The notes beneath the pieces were generated by a model. The model did not search any database. It saw only the letters and a program-made list of their open reading frames with translations, and was not told the origin of the DNA. A stretch of 64,000 nucleotides of DNA from Lachnospiraceae bacterium (GTDB lineage: Bacteria; Bacillota; Clostridia; Lachnospirales; Lachnospiraceae). Shown in pieces: positions 7,607-48,034 of the stretch. Within the stretch, counting starts at the first letter, position 1, and every line of letters begins with the position of its first letter. The position numbers and the translations under genes are program-made. Location of the stretch: contig CAJTGD010000007.1 in NCBI GenBank assembly GCA_910575475.1, positions 1 to 64,000 of the forward strand. The letters run 5' to 3'.

Positions 7607-8813
7607 AAAAATGAAAAACGGATGTATTCTATGCGGCGGAGTTGGCTCAGGCAAATCCAGAACAGCGCTTGCCTATTATTTCTTTCGGGAAGGAGGAGAG
7701 CTGCTTGGATATGCGGCTGGAGACAATTATATTCCGATGAATGATCCGCCGAAAGACTTGTATATCATCACAACGGCGCGGAAAAGAGATACTTTAGAAT
7801 GGGAGGGCGAGCTTTCGCCTTTCCTTCTTTCTACAAATCCGGAGGTCAGCTTATATTCTAACAGGGTGGTCGTTGACTCGTGGAATAATATAAAAAAATA
7901 CGTCGGTATCGCGGGTGCGTTTTTTATATTTGACGAACAGCGTGTTGTCGGATCTGGCACATGGGTAAAATCATTTCTCAAGATTGCCAGAGCTAACGAG
8001 TGGATTCTGCTATCTGCTACACCCGGGGATACCTGGCAGGATTATATTCCAGTGTTTGTGGCAAATGGCTTCTACCGGAACCGGACGGAATTTATAAGGG
8101 AGCATGTGGTGTATAGCCGATTCAGTAAGTTTCCAAAAGTAGATCGATATTTGAATACCAGGAGACTTGTCAGGCTTAGAGATTCTATCTTAGTACGGAT
8201 GGATTTTAAAAGGAATACGGTATCGCATCATGAGGATATTTATGTTTCATATGATATTTCGAAGTATAAGGACGTGTCTCGAACCAGATGGGATCCATAT
8301 AAGGAAGAACCGATCATGAATGCTGGTGGGCTCTGCTATGTTTGGAGGAAGATTGTAAATACATCAGAAGCTAGGCAGGTTGCTGTTTTGGAAATCATTG
8401 AAAAACATCCACGAGCCATCATATTCTACAACTTCGATTATGAGTTAGAGCTGCTTAGGGAAATGTTCCTTGGCCGTGCAGATTGCGGAGAGGACGGAGA
8501 TTTTGAAATGGCGGAGTGGAACGGGCATATGCACCAGCCAGTTCCAGAATCTAAGAGTTGGGTATATTTGGTGCAGTATAATGCCGGTGCCGAAGGATGG
8601 AATTGTATTAAAACCGATACTATTATATTTTACTCTCAGAACTATTCCTACAAGATTATGCAGCAGTCGGCAGGCCGAATTGACAGGCTTAATACACCGT
8701 ATAAGGATTTATACTACTACCATTTGAAGTCTAGGTCTGGAATTGACTTGGCCATCAGCCGAGCGTTGAAAGATAAAAAAGATTTCAATGAAAGTAGATA
8801 TGCAAAATGGTAG
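7572..8813 (+). CDS. SNF2/DEAD-like helicase
   Basis: A 413-residue superfamily 2 helicase. Near the N-terminus it has a Q-motif-like YGYQLKAIEKM and Walker A GGVGSGKS (residues 22-29). Motif II appears as FDEQR rather than DExH, and motif III as LLSATPGDTW. The second RecA-like domain carries NAGAEGWN (motif V) and QQSAGRIDR (motif VI, QxxGRxxR). Such compact helicases are common in phage replication modules, where they remodel forks or protein-DNA complexes. The start at ATG 7572 overlaps the upstream gene; a GTAAGT sequence rather than a strong ribosome site precedes it, so translation is probably coupled. Confidence 0.85.
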   Translation: MELYGYQLKAIEKMKNGCILCGGVGSGKSRTALAYYFFREGGELLGYAAGDNYIPMNDPPKDLYIITTARKRDTLEWEGELSPFLLSTNPEVSLYSNRVVVDSWNNIKKYVGIAGAFFIFDEQRVVGSGTWVKSFLKIARANEWILLSATPGDTWQDYIPVFVANGFYRNRTEFIREHVVYSRFSKFPKVDRYLNTRRLVRLRDSILVRMDFKRNTVSHHEDIYVSYDISKYKDVSRTRWDPYKEEPIMNAGGLCYVWRKIVNTSEARQVAVLEIIEKHPRAIIFYNFDYELELLREMFLGRADCGEDGDFEMAEWNGHMHQPVPESKSWVYLVQYNAGAEGWNCIKTDTIIFYSQNYSYKIMQQSAGRIDRLNTPYKDLYYYHLKSRSGIDLAISRALKDKKDFNESRYAKW

Positions 8814-9001
8814 AAAGGAGCGTCCCAAAGAAGCGGAGGAAGAAACGATCGATGCTGGATGAATATATCAAAGCCTATATTATGGCGAAGCTTGAAGGTG
8901 ATACAGATAAGATGAAAACCATAGAGAACGATTTAGAAAAGTTAGGAATGGATAAGGGAACTCTTTATATTCTTGCATGTTCCATCTTATCTGGACATTA
9001 G
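8807..9001 (+). CDS. small basic/helical phage protein
   Basis: The longest form (64 aa) starts at ATG 8807, overlapping the helicase stop. A GGAGGA at 8835-8840 points to an alternative start at ATG 8852 (49 aa). The long form begins with a Lys/Arg-rich tail (PKKRRKKR); the rest is an alpha-helical segment without known motifs. Which start is used is unresolved. Confidence 0.5.
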   Translation: MVERSVPKKRRKKRSMLDEYIKAYIMAKLEGDTDKMKTIENDLEKLGMDKGTLYILACSILSGH

Positions 9002-9032
9002 TAGATAATTTTGAAATAAGGGAGGAAATAAC

Positions 9033-9437
9033 ATGCCAATCTCAAAACAGGTAATGAAAAAAGAGGCCGTTGCGCGGATGGAAAGTTTAAAAATCCATTC
9101 TAATGCGGTAATCATATTTGCGGAAAATGATATTTTGAATCTGTCTTTTAATGGGTTTCTTCATTATTTAAGCGACGAACAGAAAGAGATGGTTCGGAAA
9201 TTTGAAGAGGAGCATAACAATTTAGTTTACCACGTAATACAGAACTTTACCAGCCTTGGGGAAATGCTGACGTTCTTATACGTTTCGCCTTATCCAGAGG
9301 AGTGGGCGCAGGATAGGAGAGATATTAAGGCTGGTTATCCCATAGCTTACGTGGTTAATGTGGATGACGACCATTTATCGGAATTTGGTTCCGTTCGTGT
9401 TCAGCCATGCGATGGCGGCGTTATCAGAACTGTATAA
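9033..9437 (+). CDS. hypothetical phage protein, 134 aa
   Basis: A clear AGGGAGGAA precedes ATG 9033. The 134-residue product begins with a helical region, has a hydrophobic strand (NAVIIFAENDILNLSF), and ends in a small beta-rich region (AYVVNVDDDHLSEFGSVRV) that reads like a compact two-domain cytosolic protein. No catalytic motif recognised. It is part of the run of small genes between helicase and nucleotide-metabolism genes. Confidence 0.7.
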   Translation: MPISKQVMKKEAVARMESLKIHSNAVIIFAENDILNLSFNGFLHYLSDEQKEMVRKFEEEHNNLVYHVIQNFTSLGEMLTFLYVSPYPEEWAQDRRDIKAGYPIAYVVNVDDDHLSEFGSVRVQPCDGGVIRTV

Positions 9438-9472
9438 ATTTGTTATAAAAGATTAATAGAGAGGATTAAAAC

Positions 9473-9760
9473 ATGAAGAAAAAAATATTACATATCATCG
9501 TTACTACAGCTATCGTTGGAACTATTATTACGGGATGCCAGCAAACAATGACAAAAAATTTTGGCGGGGATATGACTCTGGAACTGGAACCAAATCAAAA
9601 ACTTGAAGAAATTACATGGAAAGACGATTCTTTGTGGTATCTTACCAGGCCGATGAGGGATGATGAAAAAGCTGAGACGCATATTTTCATGGAATCGTCT
9701 AACACCGGTTTTTTCGAAGGTACGATTACAGTTATAGAATCAACGGAGGTAACAGAATGA
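9473..9760 (+). CDS. small prophage lipoprotein
   Basis: A 95-residue protein with a basic start (MKKK), hydrophobic stretch (residues 5-20) and lipobox-like IITGC with Cys22, so it should be lipid-anchored on the outer face of the membrane. The mature part is only ~73 residues and beta-rich. AGAGAGGA precedes ATG 9473 and its stop overlaps the next start (ATGA). Lipoproteins in phage early regions sometimes block superinfection; that is a possibility, not shown here. Confidence 0.7.
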   Translation: MKKKILHIIVTTAIVGTIITGCQQTMTKNFGGDMTLELEPNQKLEEITWKDDSLWYLTRPMRDDEKAETHIFMESSNTGFFEGTITVIESTEVTE

Positions 9761-10257
9761 GTTGCCAATATGATCTATATTTAGAAAAACATAAGGCGAA
9801 TGTCAAGAAAGGCTTTGAGTGGATGCTGGAAAATCTTCCAGAGCTTGTCAGGGATATTCCAGATTTAGAATGGCAGACCGGGTTTGCGCATGACCAGTCG
9901 AAGTCCGAACCGGATGAATATGAAGCCTATGATGCATATTTTTATGGCGGCAACAGGTCATATTCCGTGGTTCAGGAGTATCGGAAAGCGTGGCTATTGC
10001 ACCTTCACAGAAACCCGCATCATTGGCAATATTGGATCCTGATTAATGACGATCAAGAAGAAGGAGAAATCATTTTAGAAATGCCGGATAATTATATTCT
10101 GGAGATGATCTGCGATTGGTGGGCGTTCAGCTGGGCAGAGGGAAATCTGTCAGAGATATTTAACTGGTATGATGAACACAAGAAGTATATGAAATTGCAT
10201 CCGGATACCAGAAAGCGGGTGGAGTATATTCTGGGGAGGATGAAGGAGAAGATATGA
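9757..10257 (+). CDS. DUF5662-like phage protein
   Basis: A 166-residue protein whose start overlaps the lipoprotein stop. It has a histidine-rich core: FAHDQSK at about residue 46, and HLHRNPHHWQYW about 45 residues later, with several Asp/Glu in between. This pattern resembles the DUF5662 family and could form an HD-like metal site, but no biochemical function is known to me. The C-terminal half has a Trp-rich helix (DWWAFSWAEGN). It is coupled at its end to the next gene (ATGA). Confidence 0.68.
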   Translation: MSCQYDLYLEKHKANVKKGFEWMLENLPELVRDIPDLEWQTGFAHDQSKSEPDEYEAYDAYFYGGNRSYSVVQEYRKAWLLHLHRNPHHWQYWILINDDQEEGEIILEMPDNYILEMICDWWAFSWAEGNLSEIFNWYDEHKKYMKLHPDTRKRVEYILGRMKEKI

Positions 10258-10484
10258 ATGTTGACGAAAAAGTACCACTAAGTAAAGTTCTTGATGATAT
10301 GTATAATCCAGATGGTGGCTTTGTATCTATTGCCGCCAGAGATTATTACTATCGGTATTATGCAACCGATGAAGAGCGAGAAATTATGGATTACGAGGAC
10401 AAAATGGATACTATCATAACTGTTATATTTTTGGTGTGTTTTTTTCTAATGATGGTATTTGCCGTTGTGATATCGCTAATTTGA
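10254..10484 (+). CDS. C-terminally anchored small protein
   Basis: A 76-residue protein starting in an ATGA overlap. The first ~50 residues are polar and Tyr/Asp-rich (RDYYYRYYATDEER). The C-terminus is one long hydrophobic helix (about residues 52-76), giving a tail-anchored topology. No family recognised. Confidence 0.6.
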   Translation: MNVDEKVPLSKVLDDMYNPDGGFVSIAARDYYYRYYATDEEREIMDYEDKMDTIITVIFLVCFFLMMVFAVVISLI

Positions 10485-10495
10485 AAGGAGGAAAA

Positions 10496-10975
10496 ATGAG
10501 ACTATTTGACAGTGGTTATATGAAAGGGTATTCCAACTTCATAGAAAACGAGTGGGTGGATAATAAACCAACATTTATGATTGGAGCGCGGAACCAGGGA
10601 AAAACCAAACTGCTTATAGAACAAGCTGCCGAAACAAATGGAGTCATAGTTTGCCCTAGCCATCATATGGTGGAATATATTATTTATATGGCGCGAGATC
10701 TTGGATACTCTATCAACCGCCCTATTACCTACTATGAATTATTCATTTATTCAAAAAGTAGAAAAGACACGGACTACTACTTTGATGAATATGGTATGCA
10801 ATTAGAGAGCATTATTCGGCGAGCAATCAATGATTTTGAGCGCGATCATGTCAAAACCATCATGATTGACAAGGAATCTATAAGTCGGCTGAATGATATT
10901 TTAAGCTGGTTAAAAGTATGCGATATGGATGGTAAGAAATTAAGATTAAAAATAGAACTTTGTGAGGAGGATTAA
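10496..10975 (+). CDS. P-loop NTPase-like phage protein
   Basis: ATG 10496 is selected because GAAAGGAGG immediately precedes it; an in-frame upstream ATG at 10436 lies inside the previous gene. The 159-residue protein has a Walker A motif GARNQGKT (about residues 32-39) and a Walker B-like YYFDEYG about 65 residues later. It is shorter than most RecA- or AAA-type ATPases, so it is a minimal P-loop protein. Function unknown. Confidence 0.68.
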   Translation: MRLFDSGYMKGYSNFIENEWVDNKPTFMIGARNQGKTKLLIEQAAETNGVIVCPSHHMVEYIIYMARDLGYSINRPITYYELFIYSKSRKDTDYYFDEYGMQLESIIRRAINDFERDHVKTIMIDKESISRLNDILSWLKVCDMDGKKLRLKIELCEED

Positions 10976-10980
10976 GCGGT

Positions 10981-12005
10981 ATGGATTATAAAATTATTGC
11001 GGTGGATTTTGACGGTACTTTGTGTGAGAACAAGTTTCCGGAAATTGGAGAAGCAAACAAAGAGATGATTAAATATCTGAAAGATCGGCAGGAGACAAGC
11101 TTATTTTGTGGACTTGCCGTATTGGCGAGATTCTGGAAAATGCTGTGAGGTGGTCTGCCGAGCAGGGTCTCATATTTGATGCTGTCAACGAGAATCTGCC
11201 AGAGATCGTGATATCTTTCGGGACGGATACGAGAAAGATATTTGCCCATGAGTATATTGATGACCGGAATGTACGGATGTCTTTATGCCGTGAAAAATCG
11301 AATATGCAATCTTGGGCGGAACGAGAAATAGAAATAGCCTGCCAGCGTGAACGAGCTGAATCAGGCAGTAAAGAGAGCGAATTTGATTATGGCTGTGCCT
11401 GCTATGAAAGCGCCTTAAAGGCTTTCAATAGTCTTCTTGAAGACGGACACTCCGGGTTTAGCATTGGTGTGACAAAACATATTTTGAATCGCCTTCTTGA
11501 AGGTAAGCCCATTTCTCCTATTGAAGATACGGAAGATGTCTGGAATGATATTTCCGATATAAGTGGGCTGGATGGAGAGATGGCCAATTATCAATGCAAA
11601 CGGATGAGCTCTCTGTTCAAGTATGTGTATCCAGACGGAACTGTTAAATACAGAGATGTCGACCGGTATTACGGAGTAACACTTGATAACCCGAACTGTT
11701 CTCATCATAATGGTCTTATTGACAAGGTTATGGATGAGTTATATCCTATTCGGATGCCGTACATTCCTTGTGATATATCATTCAAAGTTGTTTGCGAAGA
11801 ATTCTTGACCGATCGGAAAAATGGAGATTTTGATACGGTTGGAATATTATATTTCATCGATCCCAATGGTGTTCGTTGGGAATTAAATCGGTATTTCAAA
11901 GAAGCCGAAGACGATTTTGTAGAGATAGGAGAAGAAGAGTACGAAGAACGGCGAGTTATGTATCAGGAACTTTTAAAGAAGGAGTATGATAATGAACCGA
12001 AGTAA
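10981..12005 (+). pseudogene. HAD-family phosphatase fused to phage domain, broken by a 1-base frameshift
   Basis: ATG 10981 opens a HAD-type hydrolase: VDFDGTLCE (nucleophile motif) near residue 9. The frame ends at 11147. From ~11091 the other frame continues the same protein: GDKLILWTCR (the conserved HAD segment with Thr), then NENLPEI, DTRK and YIDDRN (Asp-Asp motif), followed by a ~200-residue domain of unknown function (AEREIEIACQRERAESG onward) to TAA at 12005. Adding one G in CAGGAG at ~11089-11093 would restore CAG GGA GAC and one continuous ~340-residue ORF. The 299-residue ORF from TTG 11106 could still be made, but it lacks the nucleophile. Sequencing error, recent mutation or frameshifting are all possible. 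Confidence 0.8.
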
Positions 12006-12315
12006 ATTTATTCAGGGATTGAAAAGCGACGATCAGCTTTCAGAAAAAGAACGTCGGCGTATTCTCCGCGGAACGGTTAAGAAATATCCGTGGAAACTAA
12101 ATTGCACGATTGCGATGGAAGAATTTGCGGAATTACAGCAGCAAATTAGCAAACAGATTCGCGGATACGGAGATAAATTAGGACTCTTGGAAGAGATGGC
12201 AGATGCTTATATTTGCTTATCGCTCCTTGAGTCTATTTTTGATATTAAGCAGGAAGAATTGCAAAAGGCTATGGATGTTAAATTTCAAAGAGAAAGAGAA
12301 CGACTTAGAGCATAG
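11992..12315 (+). CDS. MazG-like nucleotide pyrophosphohydrolase
   Basis: ATG 11992 fits the AAGAAGGAG site at 11976-11984 better than ATG 11986. The 107-residue protein has the helical MazG/all-alpha NTP pyrophosphohydrolase pattern: AMEEFAELQQQ (EExxE-like) and ~24 residues later EEMADAYI (ExxD), with a helical C-terminus. The family hydrolyses (d)NTPs to monophosphates, and phage copies are thought to tune nucleotide pools or lower alarmone. It overlaps the end of the HAD gene. Confidence in the fold is good; substrate unknown. Confidence 0.75.
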   Translation: MNRSKFIQGLKSDDQLSEKERRRILRGTVKKYPWKLNCTIAMEEFAELQQQISKQIRGYGDKLGLLEEMADAYICLSLLESIFDIKQEELQKAMDVKFQRERERLRA

Positions 12316-17895: not shown

Positions 17896-20628
17896 ATGAA
17901 CAGTATAGCGGAAGATATATTGATGCATTATGGAGTAAAGAGACGATCCGGCAGGTATCCCTGGGGTTCCGGTGATAATCCTTATCAGCACAGCGCAGAT
18001 TTTCTGAGTCGTGTGTCTGAGTTGAAGAAGCAGGGATTCAGCGAAAAAGAGATAGCGGAGAGTATGCACCTTACTACGGGACAACTCAGGATTCAGGTTG
18101 GGCTGGCAAAGGATGAGAGAAGATCACTCCAAGTCGATACGGCAAAGGGTTTGAGGGAGAAAGGATATAGTCTGAACGAGATTGCGGAGAAAATGGGGTT
18201 TGCGAACGATTCATCCGTAAGATCTCTTTTAAACGAGAACTCAGAGATTCGTATGAACCAGGCGAAGCAAACCGCCGAACTTCTGAAAAAGATGGTCGAT
18301 GAAAAAGGAATGATCGATGTCGGCGCTGGCGTAGAGCGTGAACTTGGTATATCAAGAGAGAAGCTTAATCAGGCTCTTTATATTTTGGAGATGGAAGGAT
18401 ATGATACGTTCGGTGGTGGAGTTCCGCAAGTAACGAATCCAGGTAAGCAGACAAATCTTAAAGTTCTTTGTCCTCCTGGATCTGAGCATAAAGATATTTA
18501 TAGCTTCGAAAATATTCATACAGTCACTGACTATATTTCTTACGATGGCGGAGACTCTTTCAGAAAGTCTTTTGAGTATCCGTCCAGCATGGATTCAAAG
18601 CGGCTGAAGATCCGTTATGCAGAAGATGGCGGCGATGATAAGGATGGTGTAATTGAGCTCCGTCGTGGAGTGAAGGATCTTTCTTTGGGTGATTCCCGTT
18701 ATGCACAAGTCCGAATTATGGTTGATGGGACTCATTATTTAAAAGGGATGGCTTTATATTCAGATGATATGCCGGATGGAGTTGACGTTATATTTAATAC
18801 CAATAAGAAATCAGGAACGCCTACCACCGATGTTCTGAAGAAGATAAAGGACGATCCGGATAATCCGTTTGGTTCATTGATTAAGGAGCATGGCGGTCAA
18901 AGCTATTATGACGATCCAAAAGGTAAGTTCACCGATCCGATTACGGGTAAGAAACAATCACTCTCACTCGTGAATAAAACCCGGGAAGAAGGGGAGTGGA
19001 CGGAATGGTCTAATAAATTACCATCCCAATTCCTTTCCAAACAAACTAAGCAATTGGTTGACAAACAGCTTAATCTTGCGGCGGCTGACAAAGTTGCGGA
19101 GTTTGATGAAATCTGTTCACTTACGAATCCGACCGTAAAGAAAACACTTCTGAAATCATTTTCGGATGATTGTGACGCGGCGGCGGTGCATTTGAAAGCA
19201 GCAGCTTTGCCTAGACAGAAATACAAAGTTATATTGCCAATTACTTCAATGAAAGATAATGAGGTCTATGCTCCTGATTATAAAAACGGAGAAAAAGTAG
19301 CACTCATTCGGTATCCTCATGCCGGAACTTTTGAGATTCCGATTCTTACTGTAAATAATAAGCATTCGGAGGCTAAAAGAATCCTTGAAAACGCTAAGGA
19401 TGCCATCGGCATCAATAAAAGAGTTGCAGACAGACTCTCTGGAGCCGACTTTGATGGCGATACCGTAATGGTTATTCCTACAGGAGGCAAAGTAAAGATC
19501 AACTCGACACCTCAGTTAAAAGGATTAAAAGGATTTGACCCTAAAGCAGAATATGGAACTGTAAAAAAGAACGATGACTACTACAATGCCAGCGGGAAAA
19601 AGATAAAGGTCATGAGGAACACTCAGACAGAGATGGGTAAAATTTCAAACCTTATTACCGACATGACTTTAAAAGGTGCTAATGATGATGAACTGGCGAG
19701 AGCAGTCCGTCACAGCATGGTAGTCATTGATGCCGAGAAGCATAAGCTAGACTACAGACAGAGTGAGAAAGACAACGGCATCAAGGAGTTGAAGACTAAG
19801 TATCAGGGAAGGATCGGAGAAGATGGCAAGTGGCATGAAGGAGCCGCAACACTGATCTCTCGCGCTAAAGCTGAAACTTCGGTTACTAAAAGACAAGGCA
19901 GTCCGATGATCGACCCCAAGACGGGAGAGCAAACCTGGAAGACAGTTGCCGAGACGACGTATGTAGATAAGAAAACAGGCAAGACAGTAAAGAGAACTCA
20001 GAAGAGTACGCAGATGGCAGAGACAAAGGATGCGCGTACTCTTTCATCTGGACACCCCATCGAGGAAGCGTATGCCTCCTATGCCAATAGGATGAAGTCC
20101 CTGGCTAATCAGGCCCGTAAAGAGATGATGAGCACATCTAATATACCGTACTCCGCATCAGCAAAAGCGGTGTATCAGAAGGAAGTAGCATCTTTAAACA
20201 GCAAGTTGAACGTATCGTTAAAGAACGCGCCGCGAGAAAGGAAAGCTCAGACCATGGCAAATACTGTCGTGGATGCAAAAAAGAAAGCGAATCCGGACAT
20301 GACCAAGGCTGAAATAAAGAAAGCTGGTCAGCAGGCGCTTGTTCAGGCACGTATCTCAGTGGGAGCAAAGCGTACACCTGTTGTGATTACTGATAGAGAA
20401 TGGGAAGCGATTCAGGCAGGAGCTATCAGTGCAAACAAACTGTCACAGATTCTGGATCATACGGATATCGACGCCCTGAAACAAAGAGCTATGCCAAGAG
20501 CCACGACTTCTTTGAGTGTGGCCAAGATTCAAAAGATCTCGTCCATGAGCTCCTCCGGCTATACAACGGCTGAGATTGCGGAAGCTCTTGGCGTTTCTTC
20601 GTCTACTGTATCGAAATACTTGAAATGA
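17896..20628 (+). CDS. single-chain RNA polymerase-like protein (DFDGD) with flanking HTH domains
   Basis: ATG 17896 lies after GAGGAGGAGTAAACC. The 910-residue protein has, at its N-terminus, an MHYGVKRRSGRYPWGSG segment and two HTH-like units (QGFSEKEIAESMHLTTGQLR at ~42-61, KGYSLNEIAEKMGF at ~89-102). The core (~430-620) carries LIRYPHAGTFEIPI and ~40 residues later SGADFDGDTVMVIP, with the triple-Asp DFDGD at 518-522. This is the catalytic signature of two-barrel RNA polymerases, seen in bacterial beta-prime, eukaryotic QDE-1-type RdRp and the phage single-chain enzyme YonO. The C-terminus ends in another HTH (GYTTAEIAEALGVSSSTVSKYL). The likely role is a phage transcriptase. It sits upstream of packaging genes, so it could be a late-gene or virion enzyme. 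RNAP activity is inferred from motif and context. Confidence 0.8.
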   Translation: MNSIAEDILMHYGVKRRSGRYPWGSGDNPYQHSADFLSRVSELKKQGFSEKEIAESMHLTTGQLRIQVGLAKDERRSLQVDTAKGLREKGYSLNEIAEKMGFANDSSVRSLLNENSEIRMNQAKQTAELLKKMVDEKGMIDVGAGVERELGISREKLNQALYILEMEGYDTFGGGVPQVTNPGKQTNLKVLCPPGSEHKDIYSFENIHTVTDYISYDGGDSFRKSFEYPSSMDSKRLKIRYAEDGGDDKDGVIELRRGVKDLSLGDSRYAQVRIMVDGTHYLKGMALYSDDMPDGVDVIFNTNKKSGTPTTDVLKKIKDDPDNPFGSLIKEHGGQSYYDDPKGKFTDPITGKKQSLSLVNKTREEGEWTEWSNKLPSQFLSKQTKQLVDKQLNLAAADKVAEFDEICSLTNPTVKKTLLKSFSDDCDAAAVHLKAAALPRQKYKVILPITSMKDNEVYAPDYKNGEKVALIRYPHAGTFEIPILTVNNKHSEAKRILENAKDAIGINKRVADRLSGADFDGDTVMVIPTGGKVKINSTPQLKGLKGFDPKAEYGTVKKNDDYYNASGKKIKVMRNTQTEMGKISNLITDMTLKGANDDELARAVRHSMVVIDAEKHKLDYRQSEKDNGIKELKTKYQGRIGEDGKWHEGAATLISRAKAETSVTKRQGSPMIDPKTGEQTWKTVAETTYVDKKTGKTVKRTQKSTQMAETKDARTLSSGHPIEEAYASYANRMKSLANQARKEMMSTSNIPYSASAKAVYQKEVASLNSKLNVSLKNAPRERKAQTMANTVVDAKKKANPDMTKAEIKKAGQQALVQARISVGAKRTPVVITDREWEAIQAGAISANKLSQILDHTDIDALKQRAMPRATTSLSVAKIQKISSMSSSGYTTAEIAEALGVSSSTVSKYLK

Positions 20629-38417: not shown

Positions 38418-39200
38418 ATGTTCGAAAGTGTAGAGAATTATCATGTGCCGCACTCGATTACATTTGGTGAGAAGAATAGCTGGGACGACTGGCATCTTAT
38501 TGCTCCGACCAGGCCGTTTTTCAATCCCCCGGCTCAAAAGACAACATATCTTGATATACCGGGCGCGAAAGGGTCTCTTGATATTTCGGAGACCCTGACC
38601 GGTTATCCACTGTATGATAATCGTGAAGGACAATTCCAGTTTTTGGTGATGAACGGCTATAAAGACTGGACTGAGACTTACGCTGATATCATGGAGTATT
38701 TGCATGGAAGGCGTATTCAGGCGTATTTAGAAGACGATCCTGACTATTTTTACGAGGGACGATTCGAAGTTTCCGAATGGCAGTCTACGCATCCATGGAG
38801 CAGCATCACGATAAATTACAACGTTGATCCGTTTAAATGGTCGAAGAAGCTGTCTACAGAAGACTGGCTATGGGATCCATTCGTTTTTGCGACGGATTGG
38901 GTTAAGAAATCTCCGTTCAGAGACATTGTGATCGACAGCGATGAGTGGACGGCATATGCATTTAAACCGCAGGATTTCGGGGTGGCTCCGGTCTGCCCGT
39001 ATTTTATTGTGGACACGGAATCCGGATCGGGGCTGGATGTAAAGTATAAGAATCTCGCCCTGGGCTTATCCATAGAGCAGCATCTTCCAAACGGAAAAAC
39101 AAGGTATCCTGGGTTTATATTTTATGGATATTCGGAATATGAGCTATATTTCAAAGGTCACGGGACTTTATTTATCGAATTTCGAGCAGGGAGGTTATGA
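38418..39200 (+). CDS. distal tail protein (Dit)
   Basis: The gene starts right after the tape measure stop. The 260-residue protein has the Dit-like N-terminal strand region (HSITFGEKNSWDDWHLI), the belt (AKGSLDISETLTGYPLYDNREGQFQF) and a galectin-like C-terminal half. Dit forms the hub at the tail tip linking the tail tube to Tal and fibres. Confidence 0.85.
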   Translation: MFESVENYHVPHSITFGEKNSWDDWHLIAPTRPFFNPPAQKTTYLDIPGAKGSLDISETLTGYPLYDNREGQFQFLVMNGYKDWTETYADIMEYLHGRRIQAYLEDDPDYFYEGRFEVSEWQSTHPWSSITINYNVDPFKWSKKLSTEDWLWDPFVFATDWVKKSPFRDIVIDSDEWTAYAFKPQDFGVAPVCPYFIVDTESGSGLDVKYKNLALGLSIEQHLPNGKTRYPGFIFYGYSEYELYFKGHGTLFIEFRAGRL

Positions 39201-41236
39201 CTATGTACAGCGTATATTCGGATGATATATGTATTCATAACGATGCGTATTTGGACAACGGTTATAAACTTATCGGCCCGAAACTTACGTTAGAAGACAA
39301 TTCGGCAGGATCATTCGAAATGACAATCCCCCTGAATAATGTCGGGTATGATAGTGCAAAACGTTTAGCTTCGACAATACATATCGAGAGAGATGGTAAA
39401 TTCTTTTGGGAAGGACGCATCATCAATGAAAAATCTGATTTCTGGAAGCAAAGACGTATGACTTGTGAGGGGGAACTTGGTTATCTGAATGACACAACGC
39501 AGCCGCCGGGAGAGTACCACGATTATACAGTTCGGCAGTTTTTGACTGCATTAATCGCCGAACACAACCGGAAGGTTGATGACAGCAAGAAATTTACAGT
39601 TGGGGTGGTCACAGTAACAGATTCCAATGACAGCTTGTATCGTTATACCAATAGTGAGACAACGTTCAAATGTATCCAGGAGAAGCTGGTAGACCGGCTC
39701 GGAGGACATATTCGGACACGACATGCTGATGGTGTAAGATATTTGGATTATCTTGCGGAATACCCAAACACCAATACACAGGAAGTTCGATTCGGAGAAA
39801 ATCTATTGGATTTCACAAAGAATTTCGACCTGACTAAACTCGCCACTGTGATTACGCCGAGAGGTGCAAGACTGGAAGAATCTCCGATAGAGGCATTGGA
39901 AGCCTATACAACGGTAGAAAGTGTAAACGGAGGGAGTATTTACGTCACTTCCGAGGAGGCAATTAAGACATACGGTTGGATCGAGCAGGTTGTGGATTGG
40001 GACGACGTTAATATTCCTGCTAATCTATTGAGAAAAGCAAAGGAATATTTAAAAGATGTGCAATTCGAGGAGATGGTGCTTGAGTTATCGGCGTTCGATC
40101 TGCATAACATTTCGAAAACTACAGAGCCGATCAGTTTGCTTGACCAAGTGAGGTGTGTATCGCCGCCGCATGGCATGGACCGGTATTTTCCTGTCACAAA
40201 GATGTCTATCCCTCTCGATCAACCGGATCAGGCTACTTATACGTTTGGGAATACAGAACAGTTAAGTCTTACTGCAAATAATAAAAAAATCAATAGTCAA
40301 ATTTTAAAAAGAATTGACGAACTTCCGACAAAGGAATCCATTTTAAAAGCGGCAAAGGATAACGCTACAGCGTTGATAACAATGGCTACGAATGGGTTTA
40401 TCACGATTACTAAAAACGAGTACGGCGCTCAGGAGCTTTATATCACAGATACCGTGGATTACACCAAAGCGACTCGATTGTGGAGGTGGAACATTAATGG
40501 GCTTGGATATTCCAAGGATGGAGGGGAGACGTTCGGCCTAGCTATGACTATGGATGGGGCAATCGTTGCGGACTTTATCACAGTGGGAACTATGAGTGCC
40601 GACCGGGTGAGAACTGGGATCTTAAAAAGTCAAAATGGAAATACTTCGTGGGATTTGAACACAGGGGTACTTACCATGGTGAAGGGATCGATCTCTCTTG
40701 GAAATGGTCGATTTTCTGTTGATGATTCCGGATATTTAACAAGTACGTCCGGAAAAATCGGTGGCTTTAATATTAGTACATCGGCCATATACAACGAATC
40801 TTTGTATTTAGATAAGAATGGTCTGACTATAAAAAGGGACGATGTTGCAATCGGGAGAATAGGGACTAACAATATCAAAGGTTATCCAACACAAAGAGGA
40901 TTGGTGTTTGACTTGGATCCGAATGGAAACTATATGGCTTGGGCTTATAAAAGGTCAGGAGGTACAGATTACGATATTGTAATGGCCTATGCCGCAAGTT
41001 ATACAAATGGCTTATCGACGGGTAAGATGAACATGGGTGTTGATCTGGATATGATGGGGCACAATATTCAAAATGGGTGGATTAATCCTAACAATGGAGG
41101 TGCTGTGGGTGGAATTACCGGTACGATGAATTTTGTAAAGGTCAATTCTATGAGCAGCGATGGAACCGTATCGAGTTGGTCTAACGGATGCAGGCTGGAA
41201 TTTAAAAAAGGGTTTCTTGTCGGCGCAACTTTTTAA
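39197..41236 (+). CDS. tail-associated baseplate protein (Tal/prophage endopeptidase type)
   Basis: ATG 39197 overlaps the Dit stop (ATGA); ATG 39203 is an alternative with better spacing to GGAGG. The 679-residue protein has an N-terminal Tal-like hub domain (~1-370, with RRMTCEGELGYLNDT, and DFTKNFDLTKLATVITPRGA), then a helical linker and a beta-rich C-terminal part with repeated Gly/Asp turns (~400-679). It closes the tail channel and carries receptor-binding proteins. Confidence 0.86.
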   Translation: MTMYSVYSDDICIHNDAYLDNGYKLIGPKLTLEDNSAGSFEMTIPLNNVGYDSAKRLASTIHIERDGKFFWEGRIINEKSDFWKQRRMTCEGELGYLNDTTQPPGEYHDYTVRQFLTALIAEHNRKVDDSKKFTVGVVTVTDSNDSLYRYTNSETTFKCIQEKLVDRLGGHIRTRHADGVRYLDYLAEYPNTNTQEVRFGENLLDFTKNFDLTKLATVITPRGARLEESPIEALEAYTTVESVNGGSIYVTSEEAIKTYGWIEQVVDWDDVNIPANLLRKAKEYLKDVQFEEMVLELSAFDLHNISKTTEPISLLDQVRCVSPPHGMDRYFPVTKMSIPLDQPDQATYTFGNTEQLSLTANNKKINSQILKRIDELPTKESILKAAKDNATALITMATNGFITITKNEYGAQELYITDTVDYTKATRLWRWNINGLGYSKDGGETFGLAMTMDGAIVADFITVGTMSADRVRTGILKSQNGNTSWDLNTGVLTMVKGSISLGNGRFSVDDSGYLTSTSGKIGGFNISTSAIYNESLYLDKNGLTIKRDDVAIGRIGTNNIKGYPTQRGLVFDLDPNGNYMAWAYKRSGGTDYDIVMAYAASYTNGLSTGKMNMGVDLDMMGHNIQNGWINPNNGGAVGGITGTMNFVKVNSMSSDGTVSSWSNGCRLEFKKGFLVGATF

Positions 41237-41773: not shown

Positions 41774-43057
41774 ATGGCTGACATTCAATCACATTTAGAT
41801 TGGCTAATGGATGCTGAACGAGGGGAAGATGTACGTGGCAGCATACGTGACGCAATTGCGGCGATAAATTCCGAATCAATCGCTGCAAAAGATGCTTCTT
41901 CCTTATCGGCACAAGCAGCAGAAAATTCCGCTCGGGAAGCGGCTGATTCAGCGGAGGAAGCTACTAACGCCGCAAATGCCGCTCGGGAAGTTCAGAAGCA
42001 GGCGAACGAAGGAGATCTGGCCGGAACGGTACAAATCGGAACAGTAATTACCTCGGATCCTGGGACATCTGCATCTGTGGAAAATTCCGGGACACCAAAG
42101 GACGCGGTGCTAAACTTTGAGATTCCAAGAGGAGATACAGGAGTTCCTGGAGCATCGTTCAGAATGAGAAAGACATGGGAATCGGGCACGCCATATGTCA
42201 ATGACTCATCGCACATAGATGTTGTCGCCTATAAAGGAGGTACATATGGCTGCCTTATTTCTCACACGTCAAGTGATGAACTGACTCCTGATAGTTCTGA
42301 ATACTGGCAGTGTATTGCCGAGAAAGGCGAAACCGGTACTGTAGAAAATATTGGTGAAACAAAAATCGAATTCACAATAGCCGAAAAGTTATCCAATATC
42401 AGTAAAGACGATTCACTGTCTGTAATTTTAGGAAAGCTGGAGAAAATAGTTTCTGAACTGAAGACCTATAACGCAATGATTGGAGCAACGGCAGAAGAAG
42501 CGGGAAGCGAAGGGCTTGTTCCAGCTCCAGGCATGGGGATGCAGGATGCATTCTTGCAAGGTAGCGGTTTATGGAAGAATCTTGGCGCGGCCGCTTTTCT
42601 AGGGGTTGTCAATAACAGGGATACGACTGAAGAAGGATTTCTTGCCGATGCCAGACAGCTAAAGGAAATTCAGGATCAGATTGATTTGCAGAACTCCACT
42701 TTGGAATCTATGGGTGGAGGAAACGGAACCAATTTACCAGAAGGTGCACATGTTTACTTTTCAAAAAATAGCAAAAGATCTTACGCAGATGCATTCGGAA
42801 ACGATTCGAGCATCGATTTGAGTACGATAAATTCATTGGATTTAATCCATACGTCTATAAACAACCTCAGCACGGGTGCGCAAATTTTTTTCAATACAGT
42901 TGACCGTGTGAATATTGGGCTAGTTCTACATAAATACTCATATGAGTATTACGCAGGAATGATTATTTCCACTCATATGTACTCAAGTGGACGCTTGCCT
43001 GTATATTTTTCTTACGCTACTGGAAACTTTGCAATATTTTTTCCAAAACGTATATAA
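41774..43057 (+). CDS. phase-variable tail-fibre/receptor-binding protein (expressed variant A)
   Basis: AGGAGGAGATATTA precedes ATG 41774. The 427-residue protein has a short N-terminal attachment region, an Ala/Glu coiled-coil part (~36-80), a collagen-like PRGDTGVPGASF segment (~117-128), further helical linkers, and a C-terminal variable domain of ~115 residues after NSTLE. The recombination site copy lies inside the frame at 42691-42705, exactly at NSTLE (AAC at 42692). Everything downstream of it is exchangeable with three silent segments at 43091-43382, 44525-44809 and 44846-45137. The role is host receptor recognition; switching should change specificity. Confidence 0.85.
   Translation: MADIQSHLDWLMDAERGEDVRGSIRDAIAAINSESIAAKDASSLSAQAAENSAREAADSAEEATNAANAAREVQKQANEGDLAGTVQIGTVITSDPGTSASVENSGTPKDAVLNFEIPRGDTGVPGASFRMRKTWESGTPYVNDSSHIDVVAYKGGTYGCLISHTSSDELTPDSSEYWQCIAEKGETGTVENIGETKIEFTIAEKLSNISKDDSLSVILGKLEKIVSELKTYNAMIGATAEEAGSEGLVPAPGMGMQDAFLQGSGLWKNLGAAAFLGVVNNRDTTEEGFLADARQLKEIQDQIDLQNSTLESMGGGNGTNLPEGAHVYFSKNSKRSYADAFGNDSSIDLSTINSLDLIHTSINNLSTGAQIFFNTVDRVNIGLVLHKYSYEYYAGMIISTHMYSSGRLPVYFSYATGNFAIFFPKRI
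42691..42705 (+). other. shufflon recombination site 1 (fixed, inside expressed fibre gene)
   Basis: GAACTCCACTTTGGA on the + strand. The core holds TCCA-CTT-TGGA, an inverted repeat around a three-base centre. Flanks differ from the other three copies (GC before instead of TTCGAA). Confidence 0.85.
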
Positions 43058-43086
43058 TTTTATAATCCGGTACATAGAAAATTATA
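43053..43086. terminator. convergent hairpin between variant A and variant B
   Basis: TATAATTTT (43053-43061) pairs with AAAATTATA (43078-43086). It separates the 3' ends of two fibre variants that face each other, so either one gains a terminator after inversion. Confidence 0.5.
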
Positions 43087-43090
43087 ACCT

Positions 43091-43382
43091 TTACGAGGCC
43101 GTTATCTTTTTCCATGATTTCCAACTGCCATTAAGATTGTCTCTGACATATATGGCGGCATCACTCCTCGAAAAACAAATTTGTATTCGAAGATTTTTGT
43201 TTCCGATGGTCAATATATGACTCCCGTTGACAACATTTGGAATGTTGTTCGCGCTTGTGAACGTATATGCTAAAGAATTTATAGGTAGGTTGTCGGTGTT
43301 TGCATATTCGTTTTGTGTGTACGTAAATGCTAATTCGCCAGAATAGCCGTTTCCTCCACCCACCCCCTCCAAAGTGGAGTTC
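43091..43382 (-). pseudogene. silent fibre C-terminus, variant B (minus strand)
   Basis: On the minus strand an open frame without a proper start runs through the site copy (KNSTLEGVGGGNGYSGELAF...) to its stop at 43091. It has ~95 residues after NSTLE, ending IYVRDNLNGSWKSWKKI, a pyocin-knob-like receptor-binding pattern. Codon phase through the site equals that of the expressed gene, so inversion between sites 1 and 2 would fuse it precisely. It is a stored allele, not a decayed gene. Confidence 0.85.
43368..43382 (-). other. shufflon recombination site 2
   Basis: Reverse copy of the 15-base core (TCCAAAGTGGAGTTC on +), followed on + by TTCGAA. It is inverted relative to site 1. Confidence 0.88.
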
Positions 43383-43405
43383 TTCGAACATAAGCTGTTC
43401 GTTTC

Positions 43406-43414
43406 TGTTATACT
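43406..43414 (+). promoter_or_regulatory. extended -10 promoter for the recombinase
   Basis: TG at 43406-43407, one base, then TATACT at 43409-43414, 26 bases upstream of the recombinase start. It lies inside the invertible region, so recombinase expression does not depend on fibre transcription. Confidence 0.55.
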
Positions 43415-43439
43415 TATGACAAAAAGGAGTGTAACAAAA

Positions 43440-44435
43440 ATGGATGTACGTACACAGATTATCAACAATGTTCTTGGGGCTCTGGTGGGAATTGAAAATG
43501 CGATATTGGATAGGATTGAGAATGCATTGCATATTCAACTGAAGGACTACGAGATACAGGAAAGATGCACAGAAATTGTTCCTCATGATGGTACAAATCT
43601 TGGGATGGTAAGAAAATTTATCGCAACGAAGAGATTGGAAGGGAAAAGTGAAAAGACACTGGAAAAGTATCAGATGGATTTAGAAAATCTGGTATCAACA
43701 TTAAATAAGAAATTACAAGACGTAGAGACATATGATTTGCGATTGTATCTTGCACTTTACAAGGAAAATAGAAAGGTAAGTAACAGGACGCTGGATAACA
43801 TCAGGAAATCAATATCCAGTTTCTTTAGCTGGCTGAATGATGAAGGGTTTATAAGCAGGAACCCAGCCCGAGCGTTGAAGCAAATCAAGTATGATAAGGT
43901 TGTCAGAAAGCCCTTTACAGCTGTAGACCGGGAAAAGCTGAAAAATGCCTGTGAGTTTTTGCGTGATTTGGCACTAACAGAGTTTCTGTATGCATCGGGA
44001 TTGCGCGTATCTGAGGTTGCTTCTCTTGATAGAAATAATATAAACTTTCTGACGAGGGAAGCAACTACGATTGGAAAAGGTGGAAAAGAACGAAAATTTT
44101 ATTTGTCAGAAGTGGCCACGGAGTATCTCCAGCAATATATACGTAGCAGAACCGATTCAAACCCAGCCTTATTTGTATCTGTGAAAGCGCCTTTTGGAAG
44201 GCTGGGAAAAGAAGGGATAGAGGTTGCGGTTAAACGGCTGGGAATAAAGGCAGGGGTGGATAACGTACATCCGCACCGTTTCCGCAGGACATTGGCCACA
44301 GATTTGGTAAAGAAGAATGTGCCGATACAGGAAGTGGCTGAGATACTTGGACATGCTGATTTACGTACCACGCAAGTATACGTATGCTTAGACCAGGAGT
44401 CTGTAAAATATCATTATAATAAGGCAATCGCATAA
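43440..44435 (+). CDS. shufflon tyrosine recombinase
   Basis: ATG 43440 follows AAAAAGGAGTGTAACAA; the longer frame back to 43374 runs through the recombination site and is not needed. The 331-residue protein has a SAM-like core-binding domain (~60-145) and a tyrosine recombinase catalytic domain: Arg189 (SGLRVSEV), Lys in GKGGKERK, HPHR with His277/Arg280, His305 (LGHADLRTT) and nucleophile Tyr314. It resembles XerD/phage shufflon recombinases rather than the Tn916-type integrase at 46817. Flanked by sites 2 and 3, it should invert the fibre segments. Confidence 0.9.
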   Translation: MDVRTQIINNVLGALVGIENAILDRIENALHIQLKDYEIQERCTEIVPHDGTNLGMVRKFIATKRLEGKSEKTLEKYQMDLENLVSTLNKKLQDVETYDLRLYLALYKENRKVSNRTLDNIRKSISSFFSWLNDEGFISRNPARALKQIKYDKVVRKPFTAVDREKLKNACEFLRDLALTEFLYASGLRVSEVASLDRNNINFLTREATTIGKGGKERKFYLSEVATEYLQQYIRSRTDSNPALFVSVKAPFGRLGKEGIEVAVKRLGIKAGVDNVHPHRFRRTLATDLVKKNVPIQEVAEILGHADLRTTQVYVCLDQESVKYHYNKAIA

Positions 44436-44464
44436 GCATTAATCGAAGCAAATATTGTTTAAAA

Positions 44465-44485
44465 ACCTGATGATTCAGGTCTTTT
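44465..44485 (+). terminator. intrinsic terminator after recombinase
   Basis: ACCTGA (44465-44470) pairs with TCAGGT (44475-44480) across TGAT, followed by CTTTTT. It ends recombinase transcription before site 3. Confidence 0.75.
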
Positions 44486-44523
44486 TGGCGTGGATATCAG
44501 ATTTTTTGCATTATTCATTCGAA

Positions 44524-44538
44524 GAACTCCACTTTGGA
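44524..44538 (+). other. shufflon recombination site 3
   Basis: GAACTCCACTTTGGA on +, preceded by TTCGAA overlap (TTCGAAGAACTCC) and followed by GAG. Same orientation as site 1. Confidence 0.88.
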
Positions 44539-44809
44539 GAATATAGGGGATGGAGGAAATATCGCCATAATCACAAGAAGTATAACAAAATCAATAGATG
44601 TGGAAGCCAATTCATGGACTACACATATATTTAATGGATACGATATTCCAAAGGGATACACATATTTATTTTCATTTCCCAACATCAACATTGCTGGTGT
44701 GGTTTGTGTTGTTACTAATCATTCTAGTACAGGCGCGTATGTAAGAGTGCATGCTCTCAGCGCCGTTAAGGCAAATTTGACAGTTACGCAAGTATATTTT
44801 AAGCAATAA
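44525..44809 (+). pseudogene. silent fibre C-terminus, variant C (plus strand)
   Basis: An open frame in phase with NSTLE (AAC at 44525) runs to TAA at 44809: ENIGDGGNIAIITRSITKSI... ending VTQVYFKQ, about 90 residues after NSTLE and unlike variants A, B and D. It has no ribosome site, so it is silent where it stands. It would be expressed after recombination between site 1 and the segment bounded by site 3. Confidence 0.82.
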
Positions 44810-44813
44810 CAAT

Positions 44814-44836
44814 TTTCTATGATCAGATCATAGAAA
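44814..44836. terminator. perfect hairpin between variants C and D
   Basis: TTTCTATGATC (44814-44824) and GATCATAGAAA (44826-44836) form an 11-bp stem with a one-base centre as DNA cruciform, or a shorter RNA hairpin, between convergent 3' ends. Acts as a shared terminator for whichever allele is expressed. Confidence 0.65.
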
Positions 44837-44845
44837 TTTACAATA

Positions 44846-45137
44846 TTATGTGGTTGTTATTTTTTTCCAGGCTCTCCACGAACCGTTAAGATTGTCTCTA
44901 ACGTATATGAAATTACCACTCCTCGAAAAACAAATTTGTATTCGAAGATTTTTGTTTCCAATAGTCAGTATATGGCTTCCATTTGCAACGCTTGGAATGT
45001 TGCTTGCGCTTTCGAACGTGTACGCCAAAGAATTTACAGGCAGGTCGTTGGCATTTGCATATTCGTTTTGTGTGTATATAAACGCCAATTCACCGGAATA
45101 GCCATTTCCTGCACCTATCCCCTCCAAAGTGGAGTTC
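44846..45137 (-). pseudogene. silent fibre C-terminus, variant D (minus strand)
   Basis: Minus-strand open frame through site 4 (NSTLEGIGAGNGYSGELAF...) ending at 44846, ~95 residues after NSTLE with the same IYVRDNLNGSWRAWKKI pyocin-knob-like end as variant B. B and D are close paralogues differing mainly by scattered substitutions (for example TDNLPIN/ANDLPVN, DAAI/GNFI). Stored allele in phase with the fibre gene. Confidence 0.85.
45123..45137 (-). other. shufflon recombination site 4
   Basis: Reverse copy of the core (TCCAAAGTGGAGTTC on +) followed by TTCGAA. Same orientation as site 2. It marks the right edge of the shufflon. Confidence 0.88.
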
Positions 45138-45170
45138 TTCGAATGAAATATAGAAAATATATACTAAAGC

Positions 45171-46816: not shown

Positions 46817-48034
46817 ATGAGTGTAAAAAGACGAGACAATAAGAATCGTATTTTACGCAATGGAGAGAGCCAGAGAAAGGACGGAAGATACGCATATGTT
46901 TACGTGGATACTGACGGGAAGCAGAAGTTCCTTTATAGCTGGAAGCTGGAGGAGACAGACAGGTTACCGCAGGAAAAACGGGATTGCGTGTCTCTACGAA
47001 CCAAGATAAAAAATCTAAAGAAGGATATTGATGATGGGATTCGCCCGAATGGTGATGGGCTGACGGTATTGGAGTTGGTGGAGAAATATACCTCACAAAA
47101 AAATGGGGTGCGAAGCTCTACAAAAGCAGGCTATGATTATGCAATCCAAATCACACAGAAAGATTCTTTTGGAAGAAAACGTATAGACCAGGTTAAGTTG
47201 TCAGATGTCAAACAGTGGTTTATAAAAATGCAAAAGAATGGAAAAAGTTATAGTACAATTTGTCGAGTACGTGGTGTTTTAAAACCGGCTTTTCAAATGG
47301 CTGTAGATGATGATTTGATTCGTAAAAATCCGTTTGATTTCCCGCTTTCTACTATTGTTATCAATGACAGTAAAGCGAGAGAAGCACTAACGGAAGATCA
47401 GCAGGAAAAATTCTTAGACTTTGTGAAGAATGATAGTCATTTTTCCCAATATTACGATGCGATTTATATTTTGTTTCACACGGGACTACGGATTTCAGAA
47501 TTTACTGGACTGCTGGAATCTAATATCGATTTTGATAATCGTAAAATCATTGTAAATCATCAATTGCTTCGAAGGTCGGTAAATCATCATATGGAATATT
47601 ATATCGAGGATACGAAAACGGCTAAAGGCGTAAGAGAAGTTCCCATGACTCAAGATGTTGCTGAATGTTTCCTTCGGATTTTCAAAAGAAGAAATAAAAC
47701 GGATAATGACCTTGTGGTTGATGGTATGAGAGGTTTTATTTTTCGATCAAAAAATAATGGCCCGGTAAGTGCGAACCATTGGCAAAATTATTTCGAAGGC
47801 ATTTGCATGAAATATAACAAGTGCCATGATTCACAAAAACTTAAGGTGACTCCACATGTATGCCGACATACTTTTTGTACTAATATGGCAAGACATGGCA
47901 TGAATCCTAAAACATTGCAATATATCATGGGGCATTCCAACATTAGCATTACGTTAGATGTTTATACTCACATCGGTTACGATGATGCTCAAATGGAGAT
48001 GGAACGGGTATATGGCAACATGAAAACTTACTAA
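46817..48034 (+). CDS. int: Tn916-type tyrosine integrase
   Basis: GAAAGGAGTACAGACA precedes ATG 46817. The 405-residue protein has an N-terminal Tn916-Int arm-binding-like domain, a core-binding domain (~100-190) and a catalytic domain: TGLRISEF (Arg), HVCRHTF (HxxR), GHSNISITLDVY (His and Tyr). Highly similar in layout to integrative conjugative element integrases, yet here it closes a prophage. It should act on att sites just beyond the gene. Confidence 0.93.
   Translation: MSVKRRDNKNRILRNGESQRKDGRYAYVYVDTDGKQKFLYSWKLEETDRLPQEKRDCVSLRTKIKNLKKDIDDGIRPNGDGLTVLELVEKYTSQKNGVRSSTKAGYDYAIQITQKDSFGRKRIDQVKLSDVKQWFIKMQKNGKSYSTICRVRGVLKPAFQMAVDDDLIRKNPFDFPLSTIVINDSKAREALTEDQQEKFLDFVKNDSHFSQYYDAIYILFHTGLRISEFTGLLESNIDFDNRKIIVNHQLLRRSVNHHMEYYIEDTKTAKGVREVPMTQDVAECFLRIFKRRNKTDNDLVVDGMRGFIFRSKNNGPVSANHWQNYFEGICMKYNKCHDSQKLKVTPHVCRHTFCTNMARHGMNPKTLQYIMGHSNISITLDVYTHIGYDDAQMEMERVYGNMKTY

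What the first reader, a model, noticed from the sequence alone, without database searches (positions are those of the whole stretch)
41774..45137. Phage-encoded shufflon switching four tail-fibre C-termini
One expressed fibre gene and three silent 3' segments (B minus, C plus, D minus) are each bordered by the same 15-base site, at 42691, 43368, 44524 and 45123. Sites 1 and 3 face right, and 2 and 4 face left. All four open frames cross the site in the same phase, reading NSTLE, so any inversion creates a full-length fibre. A dedicated tyrosine recombinase gene sits in the middle. This explains the region completely and predicts a mixed phage population with at least four receptor specificities.
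Basis: partly seen in the sequence, partly recalled or inferred. Interest (0 to 1): 0.95.

Follow-up and report, generated by a model that had tools for sequence, protein, structure and literature searches.

The report
Four-ended tail-fibre switch in a prophage
A prophage in a gut-type bacterium (Lachnospiraceae) carries one tail-fibre gene, three spare fibre ends and a recombinase gene separated by four copies of the same 16-base site; the recombinase would likely flip these pieces to change the tip of the fibre, and related loci carry their own pieces in flipped positions.

Summary
In detail: a 16-base site occurs four times (+,-,+,-) in the window and nowhere else in the 6.06-Mb genome (up to 2 mismatches), and all four ends read NSTLE in one phase. 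The best reading is a tail-fibre shufflon run by a tyrosine recombinase encoded inside the array. Inversion was not seen in this prophage, but homologous loci carry blocks inverted or moved between positions, with breaks at the sites, and a public protein matches this fibre at 311 of 311 residues up to NSTLE, then carries another end. Of 44 loci with the four-site layout, I class 36 as tail-fibre type and 8 as type I restriction (HsdS) type; their recombinases separate on one branch. The kind is known (the Rin shufflon of bifidophages). New here: the recombinase-inside layout, the fixed codon phase, the HsdS kinship, and an orphan two-site switch elsewhere in the genome whose silent end is 95% identical to the end on that public fibre.

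The parts
41774..42706 (+). constant part of the tail-fibre gene, codons 1-311, ending with NSTLE
   Evidence: ORF 41774-43057; PHROGs phrog_21765 (unknown function) E 2.2e-32, minor tail protein E 8.2e-8, tail fiber E 1.8e-4; P0001 identical over 311 of 311 residues
42690..42705 (+). site 1
   Evidence: exact 16-mer
42707..43057 (+). end A, the one now joined to the fibre
   Evidence: in frame after site 1
43091..43381 (-). silent end B
   Evidence: open from site 2, 95 codons from the site; 82% identical to D
43368..43383 (-). site 2
   Evidence: exact 16-mer
43385..43401 (+). terminator-like hairpin ahead of the recombinase gene (predicted)
   Evidence: 6 terminator-like sites in the region against a shuffled mean of 2.7, sd 1.8
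43440..44435 (+). tyrosine recombinase gene, 331 aa, between sites 2 and 3
   Evidence: PF00589 E 2.4e-35 and SAM-like domain; R189, K213, H279, R282, H305, Y314 invariant in 7 of 7 rows of A1 (that these are the catalytic residues is recalled)
44465..44480 (+). terminator-like hairpin after the recombinase gene (predicted)
44523..44538 (+). site 3
   Evidence: exact 16-mer
44525..44809 (+). silent end C
   Evidence: open from site 3, 93 codons from the site
44814..44836 (.). hairpin of 10 pairs between ends C and D, possibly a two-way terminator
   Evidence: -8.7 kcal/mol, 2 of 200 shuffles as low; the A/B gap has no such hairpin (99 and 98 of 200 shuffles as low)
44846..45136 (-). silent end D
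   Evidence: open from site 4, 95 codons from the site
45123..45138 (-). site 4
   Evidence: exact 16-mer
38418..41236 (+). context: Dit-type and tail-endopeptidase-type genes just upstream
   Evidence: phrog_33 Dit E 2.8e-12; PF06605 Prophage_tail E 2.2e-17
46817..48034 (+). context: separate prophage integrase with a Tn916-type DNA-binding domain
   Evidence: PF02920 E 1e-29 and PF00589 E 1.7e-32

Best explanation
This is a prophage tail-fibre shufflon: four copies of a 16-base site, two convergent pairs of alternative fibre 3' ends and a tyrosine-recombinase gene between the pairs, which is predicted to invert the pairs and so change the tip of the fibre. Shown by the sequence: the sites, their alternating directions, the common reading phase and the open recombinase gene. 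Shown in homologues: blocks inverted or moved between the two positions with break points at the sites, and this fibre's N-terminus joined to a different end exactly behind the site. Inferred: that this recombinase acts on these sites; that it exchanges strands inside the shared core, probably around the six bases TCCACT; that only the end next to site 1 is made as fibre; that the ends bind different receptors. Label-only enumeration: inversions between opposed sites give 16 arrangements, four for each end, always with the recombinase gene in the middle; recombination between parallel sites (1x3, 2x4) would delete the recombinase gene, so loss would stop itself.
For: Four exact sites in alternating directions, unique in the genome; one reading phase; tyrosine recombinase distinct from the prophage integrase. 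The same four-site layout in 48 of 124 recombinase loci against 1 of 77 with shuffled flanks. Inverted or moved blocks in related loci: L110/L112 right block inverted, 98.8% over 563 bp, recombinase block parallel 97.5%; L125/L135 block moved right to left and inverted, 99.3% over 725 bp, right flanks parallel 97.1%; L083/L156 433 bp inverted, 98.4%, right flanks 97.2%. P0001: 311 of 311 residues identical up to NSTLE, then 36 of 110; P0003: 183 of 306 identical before and a D-like end (45% over 93 aa) behind NSTLE.
Against: The inverted pairs are relatives whose recombinases are 36-72% identical to the query nearest to them, not strains of this phage. The recombinase points the same way as the fibre in 29 of 36 fibre-type loci, the other way in 6, unclear in 1, not the even split of free inversion. 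A close relative (L075, recombinase 70%) has seven sites with the recombinase at the edge, so the middle position is not required. Binding by the ends is untested.
Confidence: 0.9

Rival explanations
1. The recombinase also works in trans: it serves the orphan two-site fibre switch on contig C21 and ends pass between co-resident prophages at the NSTLE site, so the array is one part of a shared pool.
For: The orphan block reads NSTLE at both sites, shares AACTCCACTTT including TCCACT, and no recombinase of the family was found in the 14-kb stretch read; only C7 and C11 matched in the genome. Its silent end is 94.9% identical over 118 residues to the end that P0001 carries behind the window's fibre N-terminus.
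Against: P0001's own locus could not be read; older horizontal transfer of an end would look the same; the genome is rated 7.46% contaminated, so C21 may come from another strain.
Confidence: 0.28
2. The spare ends are exchanged by ordinary homologous recombination, or the array is a relic; the recombinase no longer works on these sites.
For: B and D share about 298 bases at 82%, enough for occasional homologous exchange; one same-genus genome, G398, holds only a fragment of the recombinase next to similar ends.
Against: The four cores are exact while their surroundings differ; breaks in relatives fall at the sites; the switch in P0001 falls exactly behind NSTLE; the recombinase frame is open with its key residues kept.
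Confidence: 0.06
3. The recombinase is a second integrase or a Xer-type dimer resolver that happens to lie here.
For: NCBIfam hits are XerA/XerC/XerD models, all below their cut-offs.
Against: A separate integrase lies at 46817; family members lie in the middle of such arrays in 48 of 124 loci; the 12 same-genus genomes do not all have it (6 of 12 matched), unlike a housekeeping Xer (recalled).
Confidence: 0.03

Closest known systems
Rin shufflon of Bifidobacterium prophages (Mavrich et al. 2018, PMC6109161; passages including the abstract seen); also reported in Eggerthella lenta clade 1 prophages (PMC8778435; passages)
   Same: Prophage receptor-binding-protein gene with a constant N-terminal part, several alternative C-terminal segments, short repeats as sites, and a XerD-like tyrosine recombinase separate from the integrase; inversions seen there in prophage and virion DNA
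   Different: Rin: segments flanked by the constant gene on one side and rin on the other, 11-bp asymmetric site TTCCCTAACCC. Here: four alternating sites, two convergent pairs, recombinase gene inside; other site; closer kin to HsdS-type recombinases. Sequence kinship of the two recombinases was not tested.
HsdS inversion systems such as the pneumococcal cod locus with PsrA (PMC7096588, passages)
   Same: Tyrosine recombinase gene among inverted gene parts; short site in coding sequence (15-bp IR1 there); eight loci found here have the same four-site layout and the same codon phase with HsdS-type genes
   Different: Product is restriction specificity, not a fibre; PsrA itself was not compared by sequence
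Mu Gin, P1 Cin and p15B Min tail-fibre inversion (named in PMC6109161 passages)
   Same: Inversion swaps tail-fibre ends lying back to back
   Different: Those use serine recombinases; here a tyrosine recombinase
R64 plasmid shufflon with Rci (recalled)
   Same: Several segments, short repeats, tyrosine recombinase, alternative C-termini
   Different: Pilus adhesin on a plasmid; recombinase gene beside the array (recalled)

Membership tests
Shufflon (multi-segment inversion array with tyrosine recombinase) | Several segments bounded by short sites in opposed directions | tested here: met
Shufflon (multi-segment inversion array with tyrosine recombinase) | One constant 5' part and several 3' ends in one frame across the site | tested here: met
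Shufflon (multi-segment inversion array with tyrosine recombinase) | Linked tyrosine recombinase | tested here: met
Shufflon (multi-segment inversion array with tyrosine recombinase) | Rearranged states observed | tested here: inconclusive
   not seen in this prophage; seen between related loci and in P0001
Rin shufflon | Prophage receptor-binding protein as target, with Xer-like recombinase separate from integrase | tested here: met
   fibre role by PHROGs match and position
Rin shufflon | Recombinase gene at the far edge of the segment array | tested here: not met
   recombinase lies between sites 2 and 3; the relative L075 does have it at the edge
Rin shufflon | Recombinase homologous to Bifidobacterium Rin | not tested
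   Rin sequence was not obtained
HsdS inversion system | Target is hsdS | tested here: not met
   window fibre has no Methylase_S match
Gin/Cin/Min inversion system | Serine recombinase | tested here: not met
   Phage_integrase family tyrosine recombinase
Diversity-generating retroelement | Reverse transcriptase with template and variable repeats | not tested
   no search for a reverse transcriptase was run

The most novel reading that the evidence does not exclude
Prophages living in one Lachnospiraceae cell share one pool of receptor-binding ends: the recombinase of this self-limiting, recombinase-inside shufflon also serves an orphan two-site fibre switch in another prophage and passes ends between them at a common NSTLE site, with an enzyme family whose near kin switch the restriction specificity of the bacteria themselves.
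Probability: 0.28. Interest if true: 0.8.

Novelty: new variant of a known kind. Interest (0 to 1): 0.6.

Why it matters
It extends tyrosine-recombinase receptor switching from actinobacterial prophages to a large set of Lachnospiraceae and other gut-type phages, with a simple recognition rule (sites in one codon phase, usually four, recombinase usually inside). It ties phage fibre switching and restriction switching to one recombinase family. The orphan locus makes it testable whether co-resident prophages exchange host-range parts by site-specific recombination. It also suggests one answer to the question raised for Rin, how deletion between parallel sites is kept in check: here any such deletion would remove the recombinase gene.

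Tried and rejected
The exact 16-mer in viral contigs gave 28 stretches with one match each; a shufflon needs several, so none was used. The recombinase alone found no relative in viral contigs; alignments A1 and A2 found 4 loci and the best 80 of 528. Seven phage records were read: Terrisporobacter phage TPELB_ph1, a 32% relative behind a tail gene, shows no alternating array by the script; faecal records L241 and L242 show four alternating TAAATGATAATTT-type sites like the HsdS-type locus L102; L243-L246 show none. Contig ends: 12 of 26 right-hand contig ends closer than 3 kb lie within 231 bases after the recombinase, which would fit assemblies breaking where both orders exist, but several of these (for example L122, L130, L131) show no recognisable site there, so I do not rely on it. 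Promoter-like matches in the array were fewer than in shuffles (4 against a mean of 10.8), so no promoter is claimed. A structure model of the fibre could not be made.

Literature: eight searches of the held open-access library led to Rin and the Eggerthella case; I saw no description of this Lachnospiraceae family in those listings. Subscription papers and preprints are not in that library. PMC11892184 (passages) ties invertons of Clostridia to tyrosine recombinases and restriction S genes; the word phage does not occur in its text. PMC5903667 and PMC8138268 were seen as passages.

Rows dropped: of 48 four-site loci, L153 and L139 are copies of L083 and L081, L142's repeats do not read as a site, and for L087 the script chose the wrong frame (one search shows INENL, HsdS-like). 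The split into 36 fibre-type and 8 HsdS-type is mine, from the reading at the site and the two long halves; Pfam gives Methylase_S in 7 of the 44, and the family tables are summed over members, so not each of the 36 was matched to a tail family by itself.
Full report
Where it lies. The window is the start of a 183.7-kb contig (C7) of a 6.06-Mb genome rated 97.02% complete and 7.46% contaminated. A same-genus genome, G398, has a contig of 6,346,997 bases, the length of the Schaedlerella arabinosiphila DSM 106076 record, so the host is probably of or near that genus, in Lachnospiraceae (inference; lineage). Terminase, portal, head protease and endolysin matches place the array in a prophage. It follows Dit-type and tail-endopeptidase-type genes and precedes a gene matched to phrog_937 ('hemolysin') and the integrase.

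Observation. The 16-base site occurs four times in alternating directions and nowhere else in the genome with up to 2 mismatches. Site 1 has 329 open codons before it, the others 52, 18 and 10; all four have 93-120 after it in one phase. Ends B and D are 82% identical; A and C are different from them and from each other. A 10-pair hairpin lies between C and D, none better than chance between A and B, and terminator-like hairpins lie on both sides of the recombinase gene; their roles are predictions. The fibre label rests on position and on modest PHROGs matches.

The recombinase. It has a Phage_integrase domain and a SAM-like domain, six key residues invariant in 7 of 7 aligned relatives (their catalytic role is recalled), and about 55 N-terminal residues outside the matches to XerC-like, XerD and XerA chains. 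Unlike the integrase at 46817 it has no Tn916-type DNA-binding match. Relatives at E 1e-30 occur in 62 of 397 genomes drawn from the family and 6 of 12 of the genus.

A family with one common layout. A script looked for a 13-mer with at most one mismatch recurring in both directions on both sides of the recombinase. Of 125 loci given, 124 had a recombinase hit and 48 show two sites on each side in strict alternation; with shuffled flanks 1 of 77 does. After four rows were dropped, 44 remain; I class 36 as tail-fibre type and 8 as HsdS type. Summed over the 44, Pfam finds Methylase_S in 7, collagen in 5, Gp53-like tail fibre in 4 and other phage fibre or baseplate families in 2 each; PHROGs finds many tail-fibre families. 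Constant parts range from near-identical (L123, L126, L134) to unrelated: the window's and that of L074 in the same genome are 18% identical in the 44-row alignment. The same kind of cassette thus sits behind different fibres.

One codon phase. Aligned on the inward reading, the site has an Asn codon at the same place in at least three of four sites in 39 of 44 loci by script. On inspection L121 was anchored one codon off, which leaves 38; in the other six that codon is AAT, AAC, TAT, TAC or AGT. In the 31 fibre-type loci that the script anchored, the bases from -2 to +7 of that codon are 91-100% identical within a locus, and the six bases behind the codon differ between loci: TCCACT here, TCCGCT in the second shufflon of the same genome. 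I take those six bases as the likely crossover region (inference).

Tree. In a maximum-likelihood tree of the 44 recombinases and two outgroup rows, fibre-type and HsdS-type fall on the two sides of one branch (support 96/99; one change of label, shuffled mean 7.6). Whether they are sister groups depends on the root, which the distant outgroups do not fix. The eight HsdS-type rows all come from genomes of the window's family.

Evidence that such arrays move. L110 and L112, two loci of one genome: right block inverted, 98.8% over 563 bp, recombinase block parallel at 97.5%. L125 and L135: a block moved from the right to the left position and inverted, 99.3% over 725 bp, ending at the sites; right flanks parallel at 97.1%, recombinase blocks at 87.2%. 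L083 and L156: 433 bp of the right block, ending at the site, inverted at 98.4%; right flanks 97.2%. L123 and L134: left flanks 99.0% identical up to site 1, left block inverted at only 85.3%, and a similar block lies elsewhere in L123, so this pair is weaker. For the window's own fibre, protein P0001 is identical over 311 of 311 residues up to NSTLE and then differs (36 of 110 aligned residues); P0003 has 183 of 306 identical residues before NSTLE and an end 45% identical to D behind it. In the search with the whole fibre these were two of 7 hits.

Results against. No inverted state of this prophage was seen, and its contig runs through all four sites in one order. The recombinase faces the same way as the fibre in 29 of 36 fibre-type loci, opposed in 6, unclear in 1, not the even split of free inversion; weaker 2x3 and 1x4 inversion, or selection for direction, could cause it. 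The relative L075 (recombinase 70%) has seven sites reading NSSL or near it in one phase, with ends of 84-119 codons, all on one side of the recombinase, so the middle position is common, not required. In G398 only a fragment of the recombinase remains beside similar ends.

Self-limiting layout. With labels only: 16 arrangements, each end expressed in four; B and D are one inversion away, C two; of 32 parallel-site pairs over all states none could delete DNA without removing the recombinase gene. That this explains the layout is a hypothesis, and L075 speaks against its being general.

Second and third loci in the same genome. Contig C11 carries another four-site array with a 90% identical recombinase, a different fibre and a TCCGCT site. 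Contig C21 carries a fibre-like gene with two opposed NSTLE sites and one silent end; no recombinase of the family was found in the 14-kb stretch read, and only C7 and C11 matched in the genome. The C21 silent end is 94.9% identical over 118 residues to the end that P0001 carries behind the window's fibre N-terminus. Either a recombinase works in trans and ends pass between prophages, or an end was transferred earlier; contamination of the assembly is a caveat.

Verdict. The array is most likely a working tail-fibre shufflon. The kind is known from Rin (PMC6109161, passages); this is a new variant with its own layout, site rule and kin. That the ends bind different receptors is inferred.

Noticed in passing
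L236 (G000:C21:62000-76000), 6375-7480: Orphan two-site fibre switch in the same genome: sites at 6732 (+) and 7369 (-) inside a 36-base perfect inverted repeat, both reading NSTLE, no family recombinase in the stretch; silent end 94.9% identical to the end of P0001.
   Followed up: partly
L074 (G000:C11:54000-72000): Second four-site shufflon in the same genome, recombinase 90% identical, different fibre and TCCGCT instead of TCCACT in the site.
   Followed up: partly
L075 (G028:C7:48000-66000), 8486-11772: Expanded relative: seven sites, seven ends in one phase, recombinase at the edge.
   Followed up: partly
L094 (G398:C1:687001-707000), about 10143-12060: Decayed relative in a same-genus genome: a fragment of the recombinase beside ends similar to A and D and two opposed sites.
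   Followed up: no
L234 (G404:C45) base 1, and L093 (G404:C155): In a same-genus genome one contig begins exactly at a shufflon site and another ends 19 bases ahead of the recombinase gene, as an assembly might break if both orders were present.
   Followed up: no
IMG/VR loci, for example L144, L162, L164, L172: 12 of 26 right-hand contig ends closer than 3 kb fall within 231 bases after the recombinase, near where site 3 lies in intact loci; cause unsettled.
   Followed up: partly
window 17896-20628: 910-aa protein matching phrog_4291 over its whole length (bits 1343), named there RNA-dependent RNA polymerase; possibly a phage-encoded single-subunit RNA polymerase of the YonO type (recalled).
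   Followed up: no
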